This document shows, in pieces, positions 4,381 through 57,692 of a stretch of DNA of 64,000 nucleotides (its first letter is position 1; each line of letters begins with the position of its first letter). Location of the stretch: positions 2,660,943-2,724,942 of the forward strand of contig CAJHNH020004890.1 in the NCBI GenBank assembly GCA_905116865.2, written 5' to 3'. This DNA comes from Candidula unifasciata. Lineage: Eukaryota; Mollusca; Gastropoda; Stylommatophora; Geomitridae. A program made the position numbers and the translations under genes. The notes under the pieces are model-generated. The model searched no databases, was not told the origin of the DNA, and saw only the letters and a list, made by a program, of their open reading frames with translations.

Positions 4381-4906
4381 GTGTAAAGCAGTGATTCCCA
4401 AATTGTACGCCACGGCGCCTCGGGGAGCCGCGACCTCTTCACATGGGCGCCGCGAAATATTCGAAGATACACAAGTTTTTTTTTCTCTTTTTCAAATCTT
4501 TTAAAAACGAATATTCATGCTTTTACTTAGGTTAGGGCGCCGTGACAAAAAAAAAATTCAATTGAAAAAAGGCGCCGCGACGGTTCTTAATTTATAACGT
4601 ACCCCAAACAGGAAACTCCCGTGGGAAATCCACAGCTGACCTGACAGTCCATTATTTCAAGGGGTGCAAGTGTGCTGTTGTGTGGTGCTATTTTTGAGTG
4701 TTCATCTAGTGTCTTCTAACCCTAACCCTAACCCTAACCCTACCTTAACCCTAACCCTAAACTTGGCTGTAGATAAATCTCGAGAAACTACACCCTGAAC
4801 ACCCTAGAATTGATTGGGCATGTCTCCCGTGACGTTGTCGTCAGGGGTAAGTTATAAATGAAGTACCGCCGCGACTAAGAAACGTTTGGGAAACACTGGT
4901 GTAGAG
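4381..4906. mobile_element. hAT-like MITE with 8-bp target-site duplication
   Basis: The element is 4389-4898. Termini CAGTGATTCCCAAA and TTTGGGAAACACTG are inverted repeats of the CAGTG type known from hAT elements. Subterminal GC-rich GCGCCGCG motifs are also typical. Flanks are GTGTAAAG (4381-4388) and GTGTAGAG (4899-4906), an 8-bp duplication with one mismatch. There is no transposase. It carries a short telomere-like tract. Confidence 0.85.
4714..4762. repeat. Telomere-like CCCTAA tract inside the MITE
   Basis: About seven CCCTAA units, one of them altered (CCCTACCTTAA). The tract lies inside the hAT-like MITE rather than at a chromosome end. Confidence 0.9.
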
Positions 4907-4996
4907 TAAGACGCTAGGGTTTGCTTCTGGCGGTGAGAGAAATCATTATTATCTCATTGGACAGTTACCGCCCGCCTTAGTTGGACAGTCTCCACC

Positions 4997-5276
4997 AGGG
5001 CTGCCAATGCTTGGGGTTTCCCCCCAGATCTGGGTTTTCATTTGACGCCTCGGGAAAATCTGGGTTTTTTTTTTTTAATTTATCCTTAAATAAAAGTGGT
5101 AAATGCTTCGTTTCGTAAATCTAAATTTTGTACATTTTAACAATCTGGGTTTTTTTTATTTTGTGTTTTTGTTCTCTGTATATGTATTGCTTGGGTTTTT
5201 GTTCTCTGTATATGTATTGCTTGGGTTTTTGTTCAGCTAGGCTGGTTTTTTCAAAAAAAATCCCATTGGCAGCCGT
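4997..5276. mobile_element. MITE-E with short inverted ends
   Basis: Ends AGGGCTGCCAATG (4997-5009) and CATTGGCAGCCGT (264-276 of the 5000s) are inverted repeats. The left part recurs at 19868-19960, including CCCCCAGATCTGGG. A 30-bp direct repeat containing GTTCTCTGTATATGTATTGC occurs twice near 5170-5222. No clear target-site duplication. Confidence 0.65.
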
Positions 5277-5468
5277 GGGTGTGAGAACGCGAACACGGCG
5301 GCCTATGCATGTCGGTGCGGCACGTATTATTGATGACATTACAGAAATGTCCAGTCAAAAGGTCGCCATAAATTGATTCTGTCCAGTTATGTTGGGAAAT
5401 AGAAACAAGATGCCAACTAGCCAGCACACTTATTATATACCAAGTGACACCGCTAATGAGACATCCAC

Positions 5469-13452: not shown

Positions 13453-15979
13453 TCTTTGACACCAGTTACCCCTCACTTTGACACCAGTCACCTCTCGCTT
13501 AGACACTAGTCACCCCTCACTATGACACTAGTCATCCCTCACTTTGACACCAGTCACCCCTCACTTTGGCACCAGTCACCACTCACTTTGACACCAGTCA
13601 CTCCTCACTTTGACACCAGTCACCCCTCACTTTGACACTAGTCACCCCTCACTTTGACACTAGTCACCCCTCACTTTGACACCAGTCACCTCTCACTTTG
13701 ACACCAGTCACCTCTCACTTTGACACCAGTTACCCCTCACTTTGACACCAGTCACCTCTCACTTTGACACCAGTCACTCCTCACTTTGACACCAGTCACC
13801 CCTCACTTTGACACTAGTCACCCCTCACTTTGACACCAGTCACCCCTCACTTTGACACCAGTCACTCCTCACTTTGACACCAGTCACTCCTCACTTTGAC
13901 ACCAGTCACCCCTCATTTTGACACCAGTCACCTCTCACTTTGACACCAGTCCCATCTAACTTTGGCACCAGTCACCTTTCACTTTGACACCAGTCACCCC
14001 TCACTTTGACACTAGTCACCTCTTACTTTGACACCAGTCACCCCTCACTATGACACTAGTCATCCCTCACTTTGACACCAGTCACCCCTCACTTTGACAC
14101 CAGTCACCCCTCACTTTGACACCAGTCACCACTCACTTTGACACCAGTCACTCCTCACTTTGACACCAGTCACCCCTCACTTTGACACTAGTCACCCCTC
14201 ACTTTGACACTAGTCACCCCTCACTTTGACACCAGTCACCTCTCACTTTGACACCAGTCACCTCTCACTTTGACACCAGTCACCCCTCACTTTGACACCA
14301 GTCACCTCTCACTTTGACACCAGTCACTCCTCACTTTGACACCAGTCACCCCTCACTTTGACACTAGTCACCCCTCACTTTGACACACCAGTCACCCCTC
14401 ACTTTGACACCAGTCACTCCTCACTTTGACACCAGTCACTCCTCACTTTGACACCAGTCACCCCTCACTTTGACACCAGTCACCCCTCACTTTGACACCA
14501 GTCACCTCTCACTTTGACACCAGTCACCTCTCACTTTGACACCAGTCACCCCTCACTTTGACACCAGTCACCCCTCACTTTGACACCAGTCACCCCTCAC
14601 TTTGACACCAGTCACCGCTCACTTTGACACCAGTCACCCCTCACTTAGACACCAGTCACCCCTCACTTTGACACCAGTCACCTTTGACACCAGTCACCCC
14701 TCACTTTGACACCAGTCACTTAGACACCTCACTTTGACACCAGTCACCCCTCACTTTGACACCAGTCACCCCTCACTTTGACACCAGTCACCCCTCACTT
14801 TGACACCAGTCACCCCTCACTTTGACACCAGTCACCCCTCACTTTGACACCAGTCACCCCTCACTTTGACACCAGTCACCCCTCACTTTGACACCAGTCA
14901 CCCCTCGCTAGACACCAGACACTTGACACCAGTCACCCCTCACTTTGACACTAGTCACACCAGTCAGTCTCACTTGACACCAGTCACCCCTCACTTTGAC
15001 ACCAGTCACCCCTCACTTTGACACCAGTCACCCCTCACTTTGACACCAGTCACCCCTCACTTTGACACCAGTCACCCCTCACTTTGACACCAGTCACCCC
15101 TCACTTTGACACCAGTCACCTCACTTTGACACCAGTCACCCCTGACACCAGTCACCCCTCACTTTGACACCAGTCACCAGTCACCCCTCACTTTGACACC
15201 AGTCACCACCCCTCACTTTGACACCAGTCACCCCTCGCTTAGACACTAGTCACCCCTCACTTTGACACCAGTCACCCCTCGCTTAGACACCAGTCACCCC
15301 TCACTTTGACACCAGTCACCCCTCGCTTAGACACCAGTCACCCCTCACTTTGACACCAGTCACCTCGCTCAGACACTAGTCACCCCTCACTTTAACACCA
15401 GACACTAGTCACCTCTCACTTAGGCACCAGTCACCCCTCACTTTGACACCAGTCACCCCTCACTTTGACACCAGTCACTCCTCACTTTGAAATCAGTTAC
15501 CCCTCACTTTGACACCAGTCACCCCTCACTTTGACACCAGTCACCCCTCACTTTGACACCAGTCACCCTCACTTTGACACCAGTCACGTCTCACTTTGAT
15601 ACCAGTCACCCCGCACTTAGACACCAGTCACTCCTCAATTTGACATCAGTCACCCCTCACTTTGACACCAGTCACCCCTCACTTTGGCACCAGTCACCCC
15701 TCGCTTTGATACCAGTCACCCGGCACTTTGACACCAGTCACTCCTCACTTTGACACCAGTCACCCCTCACTTTGACACCAGTCACCCCTCACTTTGACAC
15801 CAGTCCCCCTCACTTTGACACCAGTCACCTTTCACTTTGACACCAGTCACCCCTCACTTTGACACCAGTCACCCCTCACTTTGACACCAGTCACCCCTCG
15901 CTTTGACAATAGTCACCCCTCACTTTGACACCAGTCATCCCTGACCTTAACACCAATCACCACTAACGCTGATACCAGT
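13453..15979. repeat. 22-bp minisatellite, about 2.5 kb
   Basis: Around 115 copies of a 22-bp unit, consensus ACTTTGACACCAGTCACCCC plus TC. Variants (ACTAGTCA, TCACCTCTC, TTAGACAC) are scattered. Units are cleaner around 14750-15120, and truncated units occur near 14690-14730, 14910-14980 and 15120-15200, suggesting slippage or unequal exchange. Lies in the intron between exons e' and a. Confidence 0.98.
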
Positions 15980-16167
15980 CAAAAACCCACACTTCAGACA
16001 CAATAGTGGCAAAAACCAATACTGTAAAAACTGGCTAAAATCTTCATCACAAATACAAGACAACACATACTTACCGAACAAACATGACAAAAACTCGCAC
16101 TTACCACACAAACATTACAAAAACTCACACTTATCACACAAACAACATGATACAGACAGAAACTTAC

Positions 16168-18352: not shown

Positions 18353-18852
18353 ACGTGTCCAGATTTTAGAAAAAGGCGTGCTATTGCAGAGGGGCGATCT
18401 TTGCGGCCAGTGTTATCATTTTAATATTATGTTTATATTTACAACGGGGAAACATTGCTTTAATATACTATTATCAAACTGAATATGCAAGAGAACTCTT
18501 TACTGGATCATCATGAGGAGGATAACATTACACATCCTTCTTTTTCTTTAATACGAGTAAATGGAAAAAAAAAGTTTTTCATTTTAAATGGATAGTTATT
18601 AAAGTTGGGCTCTACAGGCAAATTTGGCCGGTAAGCTGGAATGCGTCGACTGCTTCAGCTGGCTTAGCGGAACTTAGTGGGAGTTATGTCCCCGTGGCCG
18701 CACTCAAAACAACGAGCGGAAAAAGTCACGAATCAAATGACATACTTACCTATCATCATCCGGGTGCGTGTAGGGCTGCGTAGGGTGTCTATCATCGTCC
18801 TACGGTTGCGTGTAGGGCTGCTTATTGCGTGTAGGTTGGTTGTTTGTGTAAG

Positions 18853-19010
18853 ATGAGGGGTAGGGTTAGGGTTTGGGGTTTAGGGTTAGGGTTTAGCGTT
18901 AGGGTTAGGGTGTAGGGTTAGGGCTTACTGTTATGGGTTAGGGTTTAGGGTTTGGGATAGGGTTAGGGTTTAGGGTTAGGGTATAGGGTTAGGGGTTAGG
19001 CTTAGGGCGA
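18853..19010 (+). repeat. TTAGGG-like array (left of copy 1)
   Basis: Degenerate TTAGGG, TTTAGGG and TAGGGTTAGGGT units over about 160 bp, directed towards the element core. Confidence 0.95.
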
Positions 19011-19293
19011 AGCTACAGCAACGTCGCAAACGTAAGGCATGCCATCTATCTGCACGAGGTAGTAGTCCACCAGACCAACGTCGTCGACGTCGCGCACAGT
19101 CACATACACACACAAACAATCGAGGGCCTGTGGATGTTGGTGAAACGATCAATTCGCCAGCGACTGGGCACCAGCCGCCTGCTATTGGCGTTGTCATATT
19201 TGACAGAGTTTCAGTGGCGCCACTCCCGCAAACGTCAAATTGTCGGTCACTATTTAGACCTCCTACGTGAAAATGTTCAAATCGAACCATACC

Positions 19294-19425
19294 CATAAAC
19301 CCTAAACCTAAACCCTAACCCCTAAAACTTAACCCTAACCCCTAAAACCCTAACCCATAAACCTAACCCTAACCCCTAAACCCTAACCTCAACCCCTAAA
19401 ACCCTAAACACTAAACCTACCCCTC
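19294..19425 (-). repeat. CCCTAA-like array (right of copy 1)
   Basis: Degenerate CCCTAAACC and CCCTAACCC units, the inverted partner of the 18853-19010 array. Confidence 0.95.
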
Positions 19426-19867
19426 ATCTATCTTACGCAAACAACCAACCCTACACGCAATAAGCAGCCGTACACGCAACCGTAGGACGATGATAGACAC
19501 CCTACGCAACCCTACACGCACCCGGATGATGATAGGTAAGTATGTCATTTGTTTCGTGACTTTTTACGCGACTTGTTTTGAGTTGTTTTGAGTTTGGCCA
19601 AGGGACATAACTCCCACTAAGCCCCGCTAAGCCGGCCGAAACAGTCCAGCTTACCGGCCAAATTTGCCAGTAGAGCCTAAAGTTGTTACTCCATGTAACA
19701 TTAGCAACAGCCAGAATGTACCAGAAATAAAAATAGCTGGTACTCCTGTCAAATACGGACGAAGAATAAAAAGCCTTGGACGACTTAGTCAGAGTTCTCT
19801 CCCTTGGGCGCACTGCGAACAGTGATCGGAAAAGCCAACGAAACAAAGAAGACAGTCACGTCGACAT

Positions 19868-20005
19868 CAGGGCTGCCAATGCTTGGTTGTTTCCCCCAGA
19901 TCTGGGGTTTTTATTCGACGCTGCAGGACAATTCTAGGTTGTTTTTTTTTTGGGTGTGTTTTGTTTGTTGGTTTTTGCCGATTTGTATGCTTTAATGATC
20001 GATAA
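19868..20005 (+). mobile_element. MITE-E fragment nested in copy 2
   Basis: Begins CAGGGCTGCCAATGCTTGG and contains CCCCCAGATCTGGGGTTTTT, as at 4996-5060. The right terminal repeat is missing. It replaces the inner part of the left arm, which the right arm still shows. Confidence 0.7.
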
Positions 20006-20312
20006 ATTTGCGTGGTTAGGGGTAGGGGTTAGGGTTAGGGAGTAGGATTAGGATTAGGGTTAGCGGTAGGGTTAAGTTTAGCGTTAGATTTGACAATTTT
20101 GACGCCGGATTTCCCTATAATCGCGCACAGTCCCATACACACACACAAACAATCGAGGGCCTCTGGATGCTGGTCAAACGCACAATTCGCCAACGATTGG
20201 GGGCACCAGCCGCACGCGATTGGCGTCATATTTGGCAGAGTTTCAGTGGCGCCACTCCCACAAACATTTGATTGTCGGCCAGTATTTCGAAATCCTACGT
20301 CAAAATTTTCAC

Positions 20313-20576
20313 ATCTAACCCTAACCCTACCCCTAACCCTACCCCTAACCCTACCCCTAACCCTACCCCTAACCCTAACCCTAACCCTAACCCTACCCCT
20401 AACCCTAACCCTACCCCTAACCCTAACCCTAACCCTACCCCTAACCCTAACCCTAACCCTACCCCTAACCCTACCCCTAACCCTAACCCTAACCCTACCC
20501 CTAACCCTAACCCTAACCCTAACCCTACCCCTAACCCTAACCCTACCCCTAACCCTACCCCTAACTCTAACCCAAC
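20313..20576 (-). repeat. CCCTAA/CCCTAC array of copy 2
   Basis: About 260 bp alternating CCCTAA and CCCTACC units in a higher-order pattern, much more regular than in copy 1. A short TTAGGG-like counterpart lies at 20018-20075. It opens long reading frames of proline/asparagine or leucine/threonine repeats that have no coding meaning. Confidence 0.95.
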
Positions 20577-20898
20577 AACCGCATGATGATGACTACACAA
20601 CCATTCACAATGCCTCACGAAGCCGTACGCAGCCCTACACGCAACCGCAGGATGATAGGTAAGTGTCTCGTTTATTTCGTTTGTTTTCCGATTACTGTTC
20701 GGAGTGCGGCCAAGGGAGAGAACTCTGACTAACTCGTCCACGGCTGTTTATTCTTCGTCCGGATTTGACAGGAGAGCCAAATAGCTTTCCTTAACAAATC
20801 AGTGTGCTGAAAACGAAAATGTCATTACACAAAATCAAAATAAAAGTTGAGTGGCTTTAGTTTTTAAGGTAAATGCTACTAACATTTAATGACGGTCA

Positions 20899-53700: not shown

Positions 53701-55920
53701 AAGAAGAAGCCATGAGCCTCCTCCTATTCGAAGAAGAAAGAGAGAAGCAGAAGGACCTGCCTCCTACTGAGGATCCAAGGGAGTAGAAAATAGGAAGAGA
53801 AGAGCCTCCTCCTCCTCCTCTCCTCCTAAGAAGACGAAGACTTAAGAAGGAGAGAAGAAAGAAGAAGCAAGAAGAAACAAGAAGAAGATAAGAAGAAGAA
53901 GACAATCCTCCTCCTCCCTCCGCTCCTAAGCCGTCCTCCTCGAAGGCTCCTCATCCTCCTCCTCTCAAACACGAACGAAAGAGAATGAAGGCCTCCTCAC
54001 GATGAGAAGGGATCCTCCGTCCTCCTCAGAATCCGCCTCCGCCTCCGAGAAGAGCTCCTAGAGCCGCCTCCTCCTCATGAGGAGAATCCGCCTCCCGGCC
54101 TCCTCCTCCTCCTACCTCCTGCCTAAAAGGACCTCCTCCTCACAACTCGACGAAGAGAAGGGAGTCCTTCCTCCCTCCCGAAGATGATCCTCATCCTCCT
54201 CCTCCTCCTCCTCCTCCTCCTCCTCCTCCTCCTCATCCTCCTCCTCCTAAGAGGAATGACCTCATCCCTCCTCAGAGAACGCTCTCCTCCTCCTCCTCCC
54301 GAATCCTCCTCCGAAGCCTCCTCCTCCTTCCTCCTCCGAGCCGGAAACTCCTCCTCCTCCTCCGAGAAGAATCCTCTCCTCCTCCTCCCCTCAGGAGCAG
54401 AAGAGGAGAAGCCTATCTCCTCCTCCTCCTCCTCCTCCTCCTCCTCCTCCGCCTCCTCCGCCCTCCTCCGCCGCGTGCCAAAGACGAAGAGCAGACGTCT
54501 TCCTCCCGCCTCCTCCGCCCTCCTCCTCCTGCCTCAGCCTCCGCCTCCACCTCCTCCTCCTGCCTCCTCCTCCTCCTCCTCCTCCTCGAAGAGCTACCTA
54601 TCCGCCCTCCTAAGCCTCCTCCTCCTCCTCAGCCGGATCATCCTCCGCATCCTCCGAGGACTCCTCCGCCTCCTCCTCCTCCGCCGAGAAGAAGACAAGA
54701 ACGCCTCACCATAAGAAGACCGCCGCAGCATCCGGCCTCCTCGTTCCGCCGCGTCCTCCGCCAGACGAGAAGAAGATCCGCCGGCGCCTCGCCTCGCGTA
54801 GGACAGCATCCTCCTCCTCCTCCTCCTCAGGGCATCCTCCTCCTCCGCCGCCCGCCCCGACCGCCTCTCCGCCTCCGGCCGCCTCCGTCCTCCTCCGCCT
54901 CATCCTCCCTCCTCCTCCTCCTACTCCTCCGCCTCGCGCAGCCATGCGGCCGCTCCTCCAGCCGCCTCCGCCGCCGCCTCCGCAGCAGCCGAGCAGCCGC
55001 CTCCGCACGATGGCGCCTCCGCCGCCTCGCGCATCGAGCGAATCCTCGTTCCGCCTCCTCCTCCGGAACGCCTCCGCCTCCGCGCACCGAACCGCAGCCG
55101 CCGGCCTCCTCCTCCTCCATCCCCGCCTCCGCCACTCTCCTCCTCCTCCTCCGCCTCCGCCTCCTCCTCCGCCGCCTCCGCCGCAAGCAGCCGCCGCCGC
55201 CGCGCCTGTCGCCTCGCGCCTACTCCTCCTCCTCCGCCGCCTCCGCCGGCCTCCGCCGCCCCGACTCCGCCTCCGCCGCCTCCTCCTCGGGCCTCACTCC
55301 GCCGCCGGCCTCCTCCCCAGTGTCCTCTCCTCCTCCTCCTCCGAGGCCGCCTCCCTCCTCTCCGCCTCCGCCGCCTCCTCCGCCGCCTCCTCCGCCTCCG
55401 CCTCCTCCGCCGCGCCTCCTCCTCCTCCTCCGCCTCCTCCTCCTCCTCCTCCTCCTCCTCCTCCGCCTCCTCCTCCTCCGCCTCCTCCTCTCCTCCGCCT
55501 CCTCCTCCTCCTCCTCCTCCTCCTCCTCCTCCTCCGCCTCCTCCTCCTCCTCCTCCGCCCTCGCCGCCTCCTCCTCCTCCTCCGCCTCCGCCGCCGCCTC
55601 CTCCTCCGCCGCAACCTCCTCCTCCGGCCTCCTCCTCCTCCTCCTCCTCCTCCTCCTCCTCCGCCTCCTCCTCCTCCTCCTCCTCCTCCTCCTCCTCCTC
55701 CGCCTCCTCCTCCTCCTCCTCCTCCTCCGCCGCCGCCTCCGCCTCCTCCTCCTCCTCCGCCTCCTCCTCCTCCGCCTCCGCCCCGCCGCCTCCTCCTCCG
55801 CCTCCTCCTCCTCCTCCTCCGCCTCCTCCCTCCGCCCTCCTCGCCTCCTCAGCCGCCTCCCGCCTCCTCCGCCGCCTCCTCCGCCGCCGCCGCCTCCGCC
55901 TCCTCCGCCCCGCCGCCGCC
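53701..55920. repeat. Mixed AAG/CTC, then CTC/CGC triplets
   Basis: From 53700 to about 54180 AAG blocks alternate with CTC blocks. CTC dominates from 54180 to about 54900. CGC enters from about 54820 and rises to the right. The composition moves steadily from purine-rich to pyrimidine-rich to GC-only. Very long frames exist on both strands, none of them credible genes. Confidence 0.9.
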
Positions 55921-55946
55921 GCCGCCTCCGCCCTCCCCGCCTCCTC

Positions 55947-55981
<35 letters not shown>

Positions 55982-56139
55982 TCCGCGCCGCCGCCCGCCG
56001 CCCCTCCCTCCGCCGCCTCCCGCCGCCGCCGCCGCCTCCGCGCCGCCGCCGCCGCCGCCGCCGCCCCTCCGCCGCCGCCGCCGCCGCCGCCGCCCGCCGC
56101 CGCCGCCTCCGCCTCCGCCGCCCGCCTCCGCCGCCGCCT

Positions 56140-56189
<50 letters not shown>

Positions 56190-56673
56190 TCCTCCGCCCG
56201 CCGCTCCCGCCGCCTCCGCCGCCCGCCCGCCTCCTCCGCCGCCGCCGCCGCCGCCGCCGCCGCCTCCGCCGCCTCCGCCGCCGCGCCCCTCCGCCGCCGC
56301 CGCCTCCGCCCGCCTCCGCCGCCGCCGCCTCCGCCGCCGCCGCCGCCCCGCCGCCGCCGCCTCCTCCGCCTCCGCCGCCGCCGCCTCCGCCTCCGCCGCC
56401 TCCGCCGCCGCCTCCGCCGCCTCCGCCGCCGCCGCCGCCGCCTCCGCCCTCCGCCGCCTCCGCCGCCGCCGCCCGCCTCCTCCGCCGCCGCCGCCGCCCG
56501 CCGCCGCCGCCGCCGCCGCCGCCGCCTCCGCCCCCCGCCGCCGCCGCGCGCCGCCGCCGCCGCCGCCGCCGCGCCGCCGCCGCCGCCGCCGCCGCCTCCG
56601 CCGCCGCCGCCGCCGCCGCCGCCCGCCTCCGCCTCCGCCTCCTCCGCCGCCGCCGCCGCCGCCGCCGCCGCCT

Positions 56674-56729
<56 letters not shown>

Positions 56730-56812
56730 TCCGCCCGCCTCCGCCCGCGCCGCCGCCGCCGCCGCCGCCCCGCCGCCGCCTCCGCCCGCCGCCGCCGCCG
56801 CCGCCGCCGCCT

Positions 56813-56850
<38 letters not shown>

Positions 56851-56891
56851 TCCGCCGCCGCCGCCGCCGCCCGCTCCGCCGCCGCCGCCGC

Positions 56892-56923
<32 letters not shown>

Positions 56924-57075
56924 CGCCGCGCGCCGCCGCCTCCGCCGCCGCCTCCGACGCCGCCGCCGCCGCGCGCCGCCGCCGCCGCCGCCCGCCTCCC
57001 GCCGCCGCCGCCGCCGCCTCCGCCCGCCCGCCGCCGCCCCGCCGCGCGCCGCCGCCGCCGCCGCCCGCCGCCGCC

Positions 57076-57121
<46 letters not shown>

Positions 57122-57252
57122 GCCGCCGCCGCCGCCGCCGCCGCCCGCCGCCGCGCCCGCCGCCGCTCCGCCGCCGCCGCCGCCGCCGCCGCCGCATGCC
57201 CTCCGCCCGCCGCCGCCGCCGCCCGCCGCCGCCGCCGCCGCCGCCGCCGCCT

Positions 57253-57342
<90 letters not shown>

Positions 57343-57343
57343 A

Positions 57344-57437
<94 letters not shown>

Positions 57438-57452
57438 CGCCGCCGCCGCCTC

Positions 57453-57487
<35 letters not shown>

Positions 57488-57692
57488 CGCCGCCGCCGCC
57501 CGCCCGCCGCCGCCGCCGCAGCCGCCCGCCGCCCGCCGCCGCCGCGCCGCCGCCGCCGCCGCCCGCCCGCGCCGCCGCCGCCGCGCCCGCCGCCGCCGCC
57601 GCCGCCGCCGCAGCCGCCGCCCGCCGCCGCCGCCGCCCTCCGCCGCCGCCGCCCGCCGCCGCCGCCGCCGCCGCCGCAGCCGCCGCCGCCGC
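55921..57692. repeat. (CCG)n tract, about 1.8 kb
   Basis: Nearly pure C and G: CCG units with frequent one-base slips (CCCGCC, CGCGCC) and occasional CTC, CAG, GAG or one ATGCCC (57195). It ends sharply at CCGCCGC and TTTTACAGACC, the start of a SINE-B body. Confidence 0.93.

What the first reader, a model, noticed from the sequence alone, without database searches (positions are those of the whole stretch)
18600..20786. Two transposons carrying head-to-head telomere-like arrays, each with a perfect 8-bp target-site duplication
18608-19677 and 19739-20778 share terminal inverted repeats of GGCTCTMCWG type, a related core (both with ACACACAAACAATCGAGGGC), and TTAGGG-like and CCCTAA-like arrays facing each other around the core. 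Flanks TAAAGTTG/TAAAGTTG and AAATAGCT/AAATAGCT are exact. So the interstitial telomere repeats here were carried in by a mobile element and are not a scar of chromosome fusion, which the TTAGGG-to-CCCTAA orientation would otherwise suggest. Two insertions 46 bp apart also suggest a local target preference. I know of no named family with this layout, but I cannot search.
Basis: partly seen in the sequence, partly recalled or inferred. Interest (0 to 1): 0.85.

Follow-up and report, generated by a model that had tools for sequence, protein, structure and literature searches.

The report
Merlin transposons carrying host telomere repeats
These are two non-coding relatives of a known jumping gene (Merlin) that picked up the host's own chromosome-end repeat right behind its enzyme gene, so its copies leave false 'fused chromosome' marks inside chromosomes.

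Summary
18608-19677 (A) and 19739-20778 (B) are transposon copies with exact 8-bp duplications, inverted ends and facing TTAGGG/CCCTAA arrays. The window's own assembly (1.34 Gb) identifies them: Merlin-superfamily transposases (DDE_Tnp_IS1595) lie inside elements with the same ends and 8/9-bp duplications. The 'core' is the 3' end of that gene, catalytic E included. In coding copies a single CCCTAA array begins at the transposase stop codon, usually with the stop's TAA as its first unit. Array-bearing transposases form one clade beside array-less sisters. Facing arrays arose secondarily: in A by inverted duplication of the array-bearing 3' end, in B by an inverted array replacing most of the gene. 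Of 53 recognised TIR pairs, 44 have exact 8- or 9-bp duplications. A second family (about 290 bp, 8-bp duplications, copy at 4582-4867) also carries telomere units. Of 39 interstitial (TTAGGG)4 places taken in contig order, 37 fall in these two families. One contig end checked is TTAGGG telomere without Merlin. So the fusion-like pattern here is transposon-borne. Local target preference is not established. Known superfamily, new variant; no use for the arrays is demonstrated.

The parts
18600..18607 (.). target-site duplication of A, TAAAGTTG (left)
18608..18855 (+). left arm of A: inverted copy of the 3' end of the coding element (TIR plus subterminal region)
18856..19007 (+). TTAGGG-like array of A
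   Evidence: tblastn 85% identity, E 1e-51; PF12762 E 1.3e-4, 22.5 bits, below its curated cut-off of 27
19291..19424 (-). CCCTAA-like array of A, starting at the end of the transposase remnant
19449..19677 (-). right arm of A (true 3' end)
   Evidence: 95-96% to the 3' ends of L039/L048
19678..19685 (.). target-site duplication of A (right)
19731..19738 (.). target-site duplication of B, AAATAGCT (left)
19739..19847 (+). 5' TIR of B (GGTACTCCTGTCAAAT...)
   Evidence: 98% over 109 bp to the 5' end of the B-type coding relic L031, against 91% over 104 bp to its inverted 3' end
19865..19950 (+). piece of another repeat in B's left part; also at window 4993-5076
   Evidence: 82.6% identity
19977..20018 (+). 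short N-terminal transposase remnant (codons 57-70)
   Evidence: tblastn, E 6e-4
20014..20087 (+). short TTAGGG-like array of B
20083..20104 (-). inverted copy of the end of the transposase gene, joined to the inverted array
   Evidence: 22 bp, 86% identity; score 29 against a maximum of 20 in 500 shuffles; the same junction in the C-type copy of L059 scores 34 against 19
20125..20321 (+). transposase C-terminal remnant of B (codons 290-354, frameshifted)
   Evidence: tblastn, two frames
20315..20573 (-). CCCTAA/CCCTAC array of B
20541..20778 (-). 3' arm of B (overlaps the array's end), ending in GGCTCTCCTGTCAAAT (reverse complement)
   Evidence: 98% over 238 bp to L031
20779..20786 (.). target-site duplication of B (right)
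4574..4875 (.). second telomere-carrying element, 4582-4867 (286 bp, ends GGTTCTTAATTTATAAC / GGTACTTCATTTATAAC, array 4716-4760), between exact 8-bp duplications GCCGCGAC

Best explanation
A and B are non-autonomous members of a Merlin-superfamily DNA transposon lineage, moved in trans by Merlin transposases encoded by copies with matching ends. Shown: in this lineage a host-type telomere array begins at the stop codon of the transposase gene, on the 3' side only in coding copies, and array-bearing transposases form one clade. Shown: A's left arm is nearer to an inverted copy of the array-bearing 3' end than to the 5' end. Shown: B keeps its own 5' end, while most of the gene is replaced by an inverted array joined to an inverted scrap of the gene's end. 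Inferred: movement in trans; one early gain of the array at the stop codon, either by telomeric DNA captured at a break with TAAC microhomology or by expansion of a TAAC seed, followed by slippage. Inferred: the inverted pieces come from template switching while excision gaps were repaired, at least twice (A joins at codon 263, B/C at about codon 290 with a shared junction). Inferred: the arrays are passengers, since their length varies and they dwindle to about 40 bp in L035 and L042. The facing TTAGGG/CCCTAA pattern is therefore spread by transposition and is not a fusion of chromosome ends.
For: Same-type ends plus exact 8/9-bp duplications around PF12762 transposases in 10 of the 30 Merlin loci fetched; open 356-aa frame in L029, PF12762 2e-20, D198/D259/E300. 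Cores of A and B align to the transposase C terminus. The stop lies at or in the start of the array in 11 of 11 array-bearing frames read to their end; array-less relatives keep the same C terminus with other sequence after the stop. Array clade 100/99 support. A's left arm and B's inverted gene end; the B-type junction again in the C-type copy. 44 of 53 TIR pairs have exact duplications (38 of 8 bp, all different, and 6 of 9 bp). 37 of 39 (TTAGGG)4 places fall in the two TIR families. One contig end is TTAGGG telomere with no Merlin match.
Against: 7 of 53 TIR pairs show no duplication by the test used. No transposition was observed; mobility is read from duplications. The assembly is unnamed and fragmented, and no empty orthologous site was available. 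18 of 30 fetched Merlin loci are array-less relatives whose ends I could not define. The single gain rests on 10 array and 8 array-less frames from one genome; three array-type loci (L032, L034, L038) were not in the tree. The template-switch step has no direct evidence. The second family's transposase is unknown.
Confidence: 0.92

Rival explanations
1. Scar of telomere-telomere chromosome fusion: head-to-head TTAGGG/CCCTAA arrays left at a fusion point.
For: Orientation fits; fusion ITSs are described as head-to-head (PMC8537989, passages).
Against: Exact short duplications, transposase remnant in the middle, hundreds of dispersed ends, only about 46-264 bp of telomere-like words per array in A and B.
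Confidence: 0.01
2. Short ITSs put in one by one by telomerase during double-strand-break repair, unrelated to transposons.
For: The route proposed for short vertebrate ITSs (PMC8537989, passages); 2 of the 39 places here (L094, L109) matched no transposon reference.
Against: 37 of 39 places fall in two TIR families with 8/9-bp duplications.
Confidence: 0.02
3. The array has a job in the element (3' end formation, binding of telomere proteins, replication or repair bias) and is kept by selection.
For: Present in coding copies with end types A, B, C2, E, F and G, and at the stop codon in all 11 frames read.
Against: About 41-43 bp of array words are left in L035 and L042, whose ends and duplications are intact; unit variants are many. 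Array-less sisters exist.
Confidence: 0.12
4. The arrays were gained several times independently in different subfamilies.
For: A second, unrelated-looking TIR family in the same genome also carries telomere units, so gain can recur.
Against: Same position at the stop codon, and one clade with 100/99 support among the 18 frames of this genome placed.
Confidence: 0.06
5. A and B lie 46 bp apart because Merlin prefers to insert near or at ends of other Merlin copies.
For: Two insertions abut another Merlin-like terminus at the same offset, the GG of its end being the last two bases of the duplication (L060, L073). L035 and L059 each hold two elements with own duplications 251 and 335 bp apart (one of the four duplications has a mismatch). 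C32 holds two insertions with different exact duplications and an unpaired end in 4.6 kb.
Against: Among 59 consecutive pairs of elements, 4 gaps are under 2 kb (0.06-0.12 expected under uniform spread), but two proved to be duplications within one element and the other two are the C32 cluster. L035, L059, L060 and L073 were not drawn as a random sample. The pattern search for facing ends did not complete.
Confidence: 0.35

Closest known systems
Merlin superfamily (IS1595/IS1016-related DNA transposons)
   Same: TIRs beginning GG, 8- or 9-bp duplications, DDE_Tnp_IS1595 transposase, no Zn_Tnp_IS1595 domain found (defining features from PMC8101967, passages).
   Different: Host telomere array at the transposase stop codon; non-coding copies with facing arrays. 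PMC8101967 reports internal tandem repeats in some Merlins, in one case duplicated in opposite orientation; 'telomer' does not occur in its main text.
Oxytricha telomere-bearing elements (TBE, Tc1/mariner)
   Same: DNA transposons carrying telomere-like repeats (PMC12242761, passages).
   Different: G4T4 repeats belong to the TIRs; ANT duplication; Tc1/mariner transposase; eliminated during development.
Fusion ITS and short ITS of vertebrates
   Same: Interstitial telomere repeats, head-to-head in the fusion class (PMC8537989, passages).
   Different: Not described there as transposon-borne; [quoted passage not shown]
Helentron-borne satellite-like arrays of the oyster (Cg_HINE) and MITE-borne tandem repeats of Xenopus
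   Same: Tandem repeats dispersed by non-autonomous elements (PMC7492417, passages; the Xenopus work seen only as a reference title).
   Different: Helentrons in the oyster case; no telomere unit seen in the passages read.
Sea-urchin TU and other foldback elements (recalled, no call)
   Same: Long inverted repeats with tandem arrays, 8-bp duplications, as recalled.
   Different: Not tested here; no telomere units as far as I recall.

Membership tests
Merlin superfamily | transposase with DDE_Tnp_IS1595 (PF12762) | tested here: met
   L029 2e-20, L039 1.8e-19, in elements with matching ends; A's remnant 1.3e-4, below cut-off alone, but 85% identical to L029
Merlin superfamily | 8- or 9-bp target-site duplication | tested here: met
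   38 exact 8-bp and 6 exact 9-bp of 53 TIR pairs; 2 more with one mismatch; 7 with none
Merlin superfamily | TIRs of 24-462 bp starting with GG | tested here: met
   A about 248 bp, B about 112 bp; the end types used all start with GG, and GG was also asked for, so only searches found it without asking
Merlin superfamily | no N-terminal Zn_Tnp_IS1595 domain | tested here: met
   no such match in L029, L039 (partial frame) or L051 at E 0.1
Merlin superfamily | conserved DDE residues; about 50-70 aa between blocks 1 and 2 | tested here: met
   D198, D259, E300 in L029, 60 residues between the two Ds; the blocks themselves were not aligned
Merlin superfamily (second family, 4582-4867) | matching transposase | tested here: inconclusive
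   GG ends and 8-bp duplications, but no Merlin locus carries a pair of its ends; single weak 17/24 hits in L040 and L060; exact motif absent from L096-L101
fusion ITS | unique join of two chromosome ends without element boundaries or duplications | tested here: not met
   defined ends, duplications, many copies
Oxytricha TBE | Tc1/mariner transposase, telomere repeats in the TIR, ANT duplication | tested here: not met
   Merlin transposase, internal array, 8/9-bp duplications

The most novel reading that the evidence does not exclude
Merlin and a second TIR family have become the main distributors of host telomere sequence inside the chromosomes of this genome, and the arrays matter: facing telomere arrays around a short core are ready templates for break healing or telomerase-independent telomere upkeep (as adjacent ITS tracts are in worms that survive by TALT), and the Merlin array may be kept because it ends the transposase gene.
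Probability: 0.1. Interest if true: 0.85.

Novelty: new variant of a known kind. Interest (0 to 1): 0.62.

Why it matters
Head-to-head TTAGGG/CCCTAA arrays are read as marks of chromosome fusion. In this genome 37 of the 39 interstitial (TTAGGG)4 places examined fall in two TIR families, and one layout mimics the fusion signature. Fusion calls and telomere-probe signals in related species would have to be checked against such elements. It also offers a route, datable by copy divergence, for how interstitial telomere sequence spreads, and a natural test of whether it affects stability, since array-bearing and array-less sister copies share one genome.

Tried and rejected
Rejected: fusion scar; telomerase insertion copy by copy. 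Other superfamilies with duplications of about this size (hAT, P, MULE, KDZ; recalled) were considered but not searched, because Merlin matched at the first family tried. Led nowhere: phage records and viral contigs gave no relative; the 18 homologous proteins whose sequences I printed (of 65 listed) mostly end at the same C terminus and cannot show arrays; the coding partner of the second family was not found; ends of the array-less 331-aa Merlin lineage were not found in two 6-kb stretches. Literature: ten searches showed no animal TIR transposon described as carrying telomere arrays. I saw listings only, some cut (20 of 62, 20 of 39, 25 of 185), and passages of eight papers; the library holds open PMC papers only, so this is no proof of absence. 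Clustering was first counted as 4 close gaps and cut down when two proved to be internal duplications. The script stopped before its tree; the tree was built without L101, which gave no frame.

Full report
Observation. Both elements are there at the stated coordinates, with exact 8-bp duplications and inverted ends. The arrays and the shared core are as described. B's left end is GGTACTCC and its inverted arm is short, about 112 bp; other B copies share that end.

Copies elsewhere. The window lies in a held assembly, G000, of 1,344,651,174 bases in 7,176 contigs. A search with both elements gave 226 matches; only 40 of 2,632 first-look candidates were scored. The 16-base end pattern GGYWCTMCTGKCAAAT occurs 1,400 times, against 5 for the reversed control, so several hundred copies exist. 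I examined the loci held (L001-L075; L011, L024 and L025 left out as the same places as L060, L073 and L059). Of 53 recognised TIR pairs, 38 have an exact 8-bp and 6 an exact 9-bp duplication; 1 has one mismatch; 1, a rearranged copy in L060 that I dropped from later counts, fits with shifted ends and one mismatch; 7 show none: L004, L006, L012, L015, L018, L061, L063. The two window elements are among the 53. All 38 8-mers differ, with a weak palindromic bias nAAATTTn.

Transposase. A search of the assembly with PF12762 (DDE_Tnp_IS1595, the Merlin transposase domain) gave 150 matches from the 150 candidates scored of 408, and 30 became loci L029-L058. In 10 of these 30 the transposase sits between ends of these types with exact 8- or 9-bp duplications: L029-L032, L035, L039-L042, L048 (one end of L041 was missed by the stricter test). 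A-type ends flank L039 and L048; B-type ends flank L031, L032, L040 and L041. Of the other 20, 17 belong by protein to one array-less lineage, one (L047) is another array-less form, and two (L034, L038) are array-type by protein with only one recognised end. L029 has an open 356-aa frame, PF12762 at 2e-20, and D198, D259, E300. No zinc domain of the IS1595 kind was found, as expected of Merlin (PMC8101967, passages).

What the core is. tblastn of the L029 protein places codons 263-355 at window 19011-19292 in A (85% identity) and codons 290-354, frameshifted, in B. B also keeps codons 57-70.

Where the array sits. In coding copies the array is on the 3' side (at most 12 bp of TTAGGG-like words elsewhere in the ten). 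In 11 of 11 array-bearing frames read to their end (L029, L030, L031, L034, L035, L039-L042, L048, L098) the stop codon lies at the first unit of the CCCTAA array or just inside it: eight end NFHI, NFNI or HFHI with TAA and then CC; A-type L039 and L048, and L029, run four codons further. Frames cut short elsewhere (L032, L038, L052, L058, L099) say nothing. Array-less relatives keep the C terminus and stop, followed by other sequence (L043, L047, L051, L100). In a tree of 28 C-terminal sequences the ten array-bearing ones form one clade (100/99), with L047 and L100 next to it. L100 also has a GGCTCTCC end.

How facing arrays arose. A's left arm matches the inverted 3' end of coding copies over 218 bp at 92-93%, but their 5' end over only 126 bp at 88-89%, so the 3' end, array included, was duplicated in inverted orientation. 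B differs: its left end is the true 5' end (98% over 109 bp), and an inverted array with 22 bp of inverted gene end stands in place of most of the gene (score 29 against a maximum of 20 in 500 shuffles). The C-type copy of L059 shares this junction (22 bp, score 34 against 19; a first look searched too narrow a stretch). The joins of A and of B/C differ, so at least two events are needed. Template switching in gap repair is my inference.

Second family and the share of interstitial telomere sequence. (TTAGGG)4 occurs 1,661 times, counting overlapping matches and true telomeres, against 0 for the reversed control. The answer lists only the first places; I took them in contig order until C228, merging matches of one array or element: 39 places. 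I fetched 32. Of these, 14 match array-masked Merlin references, 16 match a second TIR family, and 2 (L094, L109) match neither; of 60 random window pieces, 3 matched, each overlapping a known element of the window. In 28 of the 30 the match spans the array or lies on both sides of it; in L089 and L111 it lies on one side only. The other 7 places I assigned by coordinates: C86 is L039; C130, C142:248875, C156, C191:43876 and C221 lie between Merlin ends; C142:257323 lies between second-family ends. Together 37 of 39. The second family is 274-293 bp with ends near GGTWCTTAATTTATAAC and 8-bp duplications: of 11 copies with both ends, 8 are exact (the window copy and L082, whose AT repeat proves little, among them) and 3 have one mismatch; a twelfth, L089, lacks one end. 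Its end pattern occurs 1,452 times against 0. It has no assigned transposase. C228 runs in dense TTAGGG to within 166 bp of its end, where my stretch stops, with no Merlin match, so the host telomere unit is TTAGGG.

Local preference. Among 60 elements built from the first 100 listed ends, 4 of 59 consecutive gaps are under 2 kb (0.06-0.12 expected), but two are duplications within one element and the other two are one cluster, C32. Elsewhere, L035 and L059 hold neighbours within 0.4 kb, and in L060 and L073 an insertion abuts another Merlin-like end with the same offset. This is suggestive only.

Host. Among the 120 listed hits of a window LINE protein the named ones are sea slugs (Elysia), a land snail (Bradybaena) and one bacterial bin, so a gastropod is likely but unproven. 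A mollusc TE survey found Merlin almost restricted to cephalopods (PMC10294476, passages).

Function. I see no sign that the array is needed: it shrinks to about 40 bp in intact-ended copies (L035, L042). The bold reading is that such arrays seed or template telomere repair, as adjacent ITS tracts do in worms that survive by TALT (PMC9071541, passages). It is not excluded and not shown.

Noticed in passing
window 4574-4875: Second, short TIR element with an exact 8-bp duplication GCCGCGAC and a CCCTAA array; its family has 1,452 exact ends in the assembly, transposase unknown.
   Followed up: partly
window about 4999-5285 and 19865-19950: Another repeat with ends GGCTGCCAATG / CATTGGCAGCC (read by eye); a piece of it sits inside B's left part and, by eye, in the C-type element of L059/L025.
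   Followed up: no
L074 2477-4917, L075 2487-4969: A repeat of about 5.5 kb or more (95% alike in two places) holding an open array-less Merlin transposase (331 aa) tail to tail with a truncated array-type one; its ends were not found.
   Followed up: partly
L096, L097, L101: A distant Merlin-like lineage in the same genome (L096 and L097 end DIARFWPP); no (TTAGGG)2 or (CCCTAA)2 seen.
   Followed up: partly
L029, L035, L042, L098, L100, L047, downstream of the transposase stop: GGTAAGT, a splice-donor-like string, stands 3' of the array in the array-bearing copies and shortly after the stop in array-less L100 and L047.
   Followed up: no
L104 162-1651; L103 203-1334: Merlin copies with a duplicated 5' part; in L104 the duplication AGAATGCC also stands between the two units.
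   Followed up: partly
L094 about 400-700 and L109 about 400-445: The two of 39 interstitial telomere places that matched no transposon reference; L094 has a CCCTAACCTTAA pattern.
   Followed up: no
window 55105-57692 and 13454-15981: Very long CCT/CCG array (2.6 kb) and a 22-bp satellite-like array (2.5 kb).
   Followed up: no
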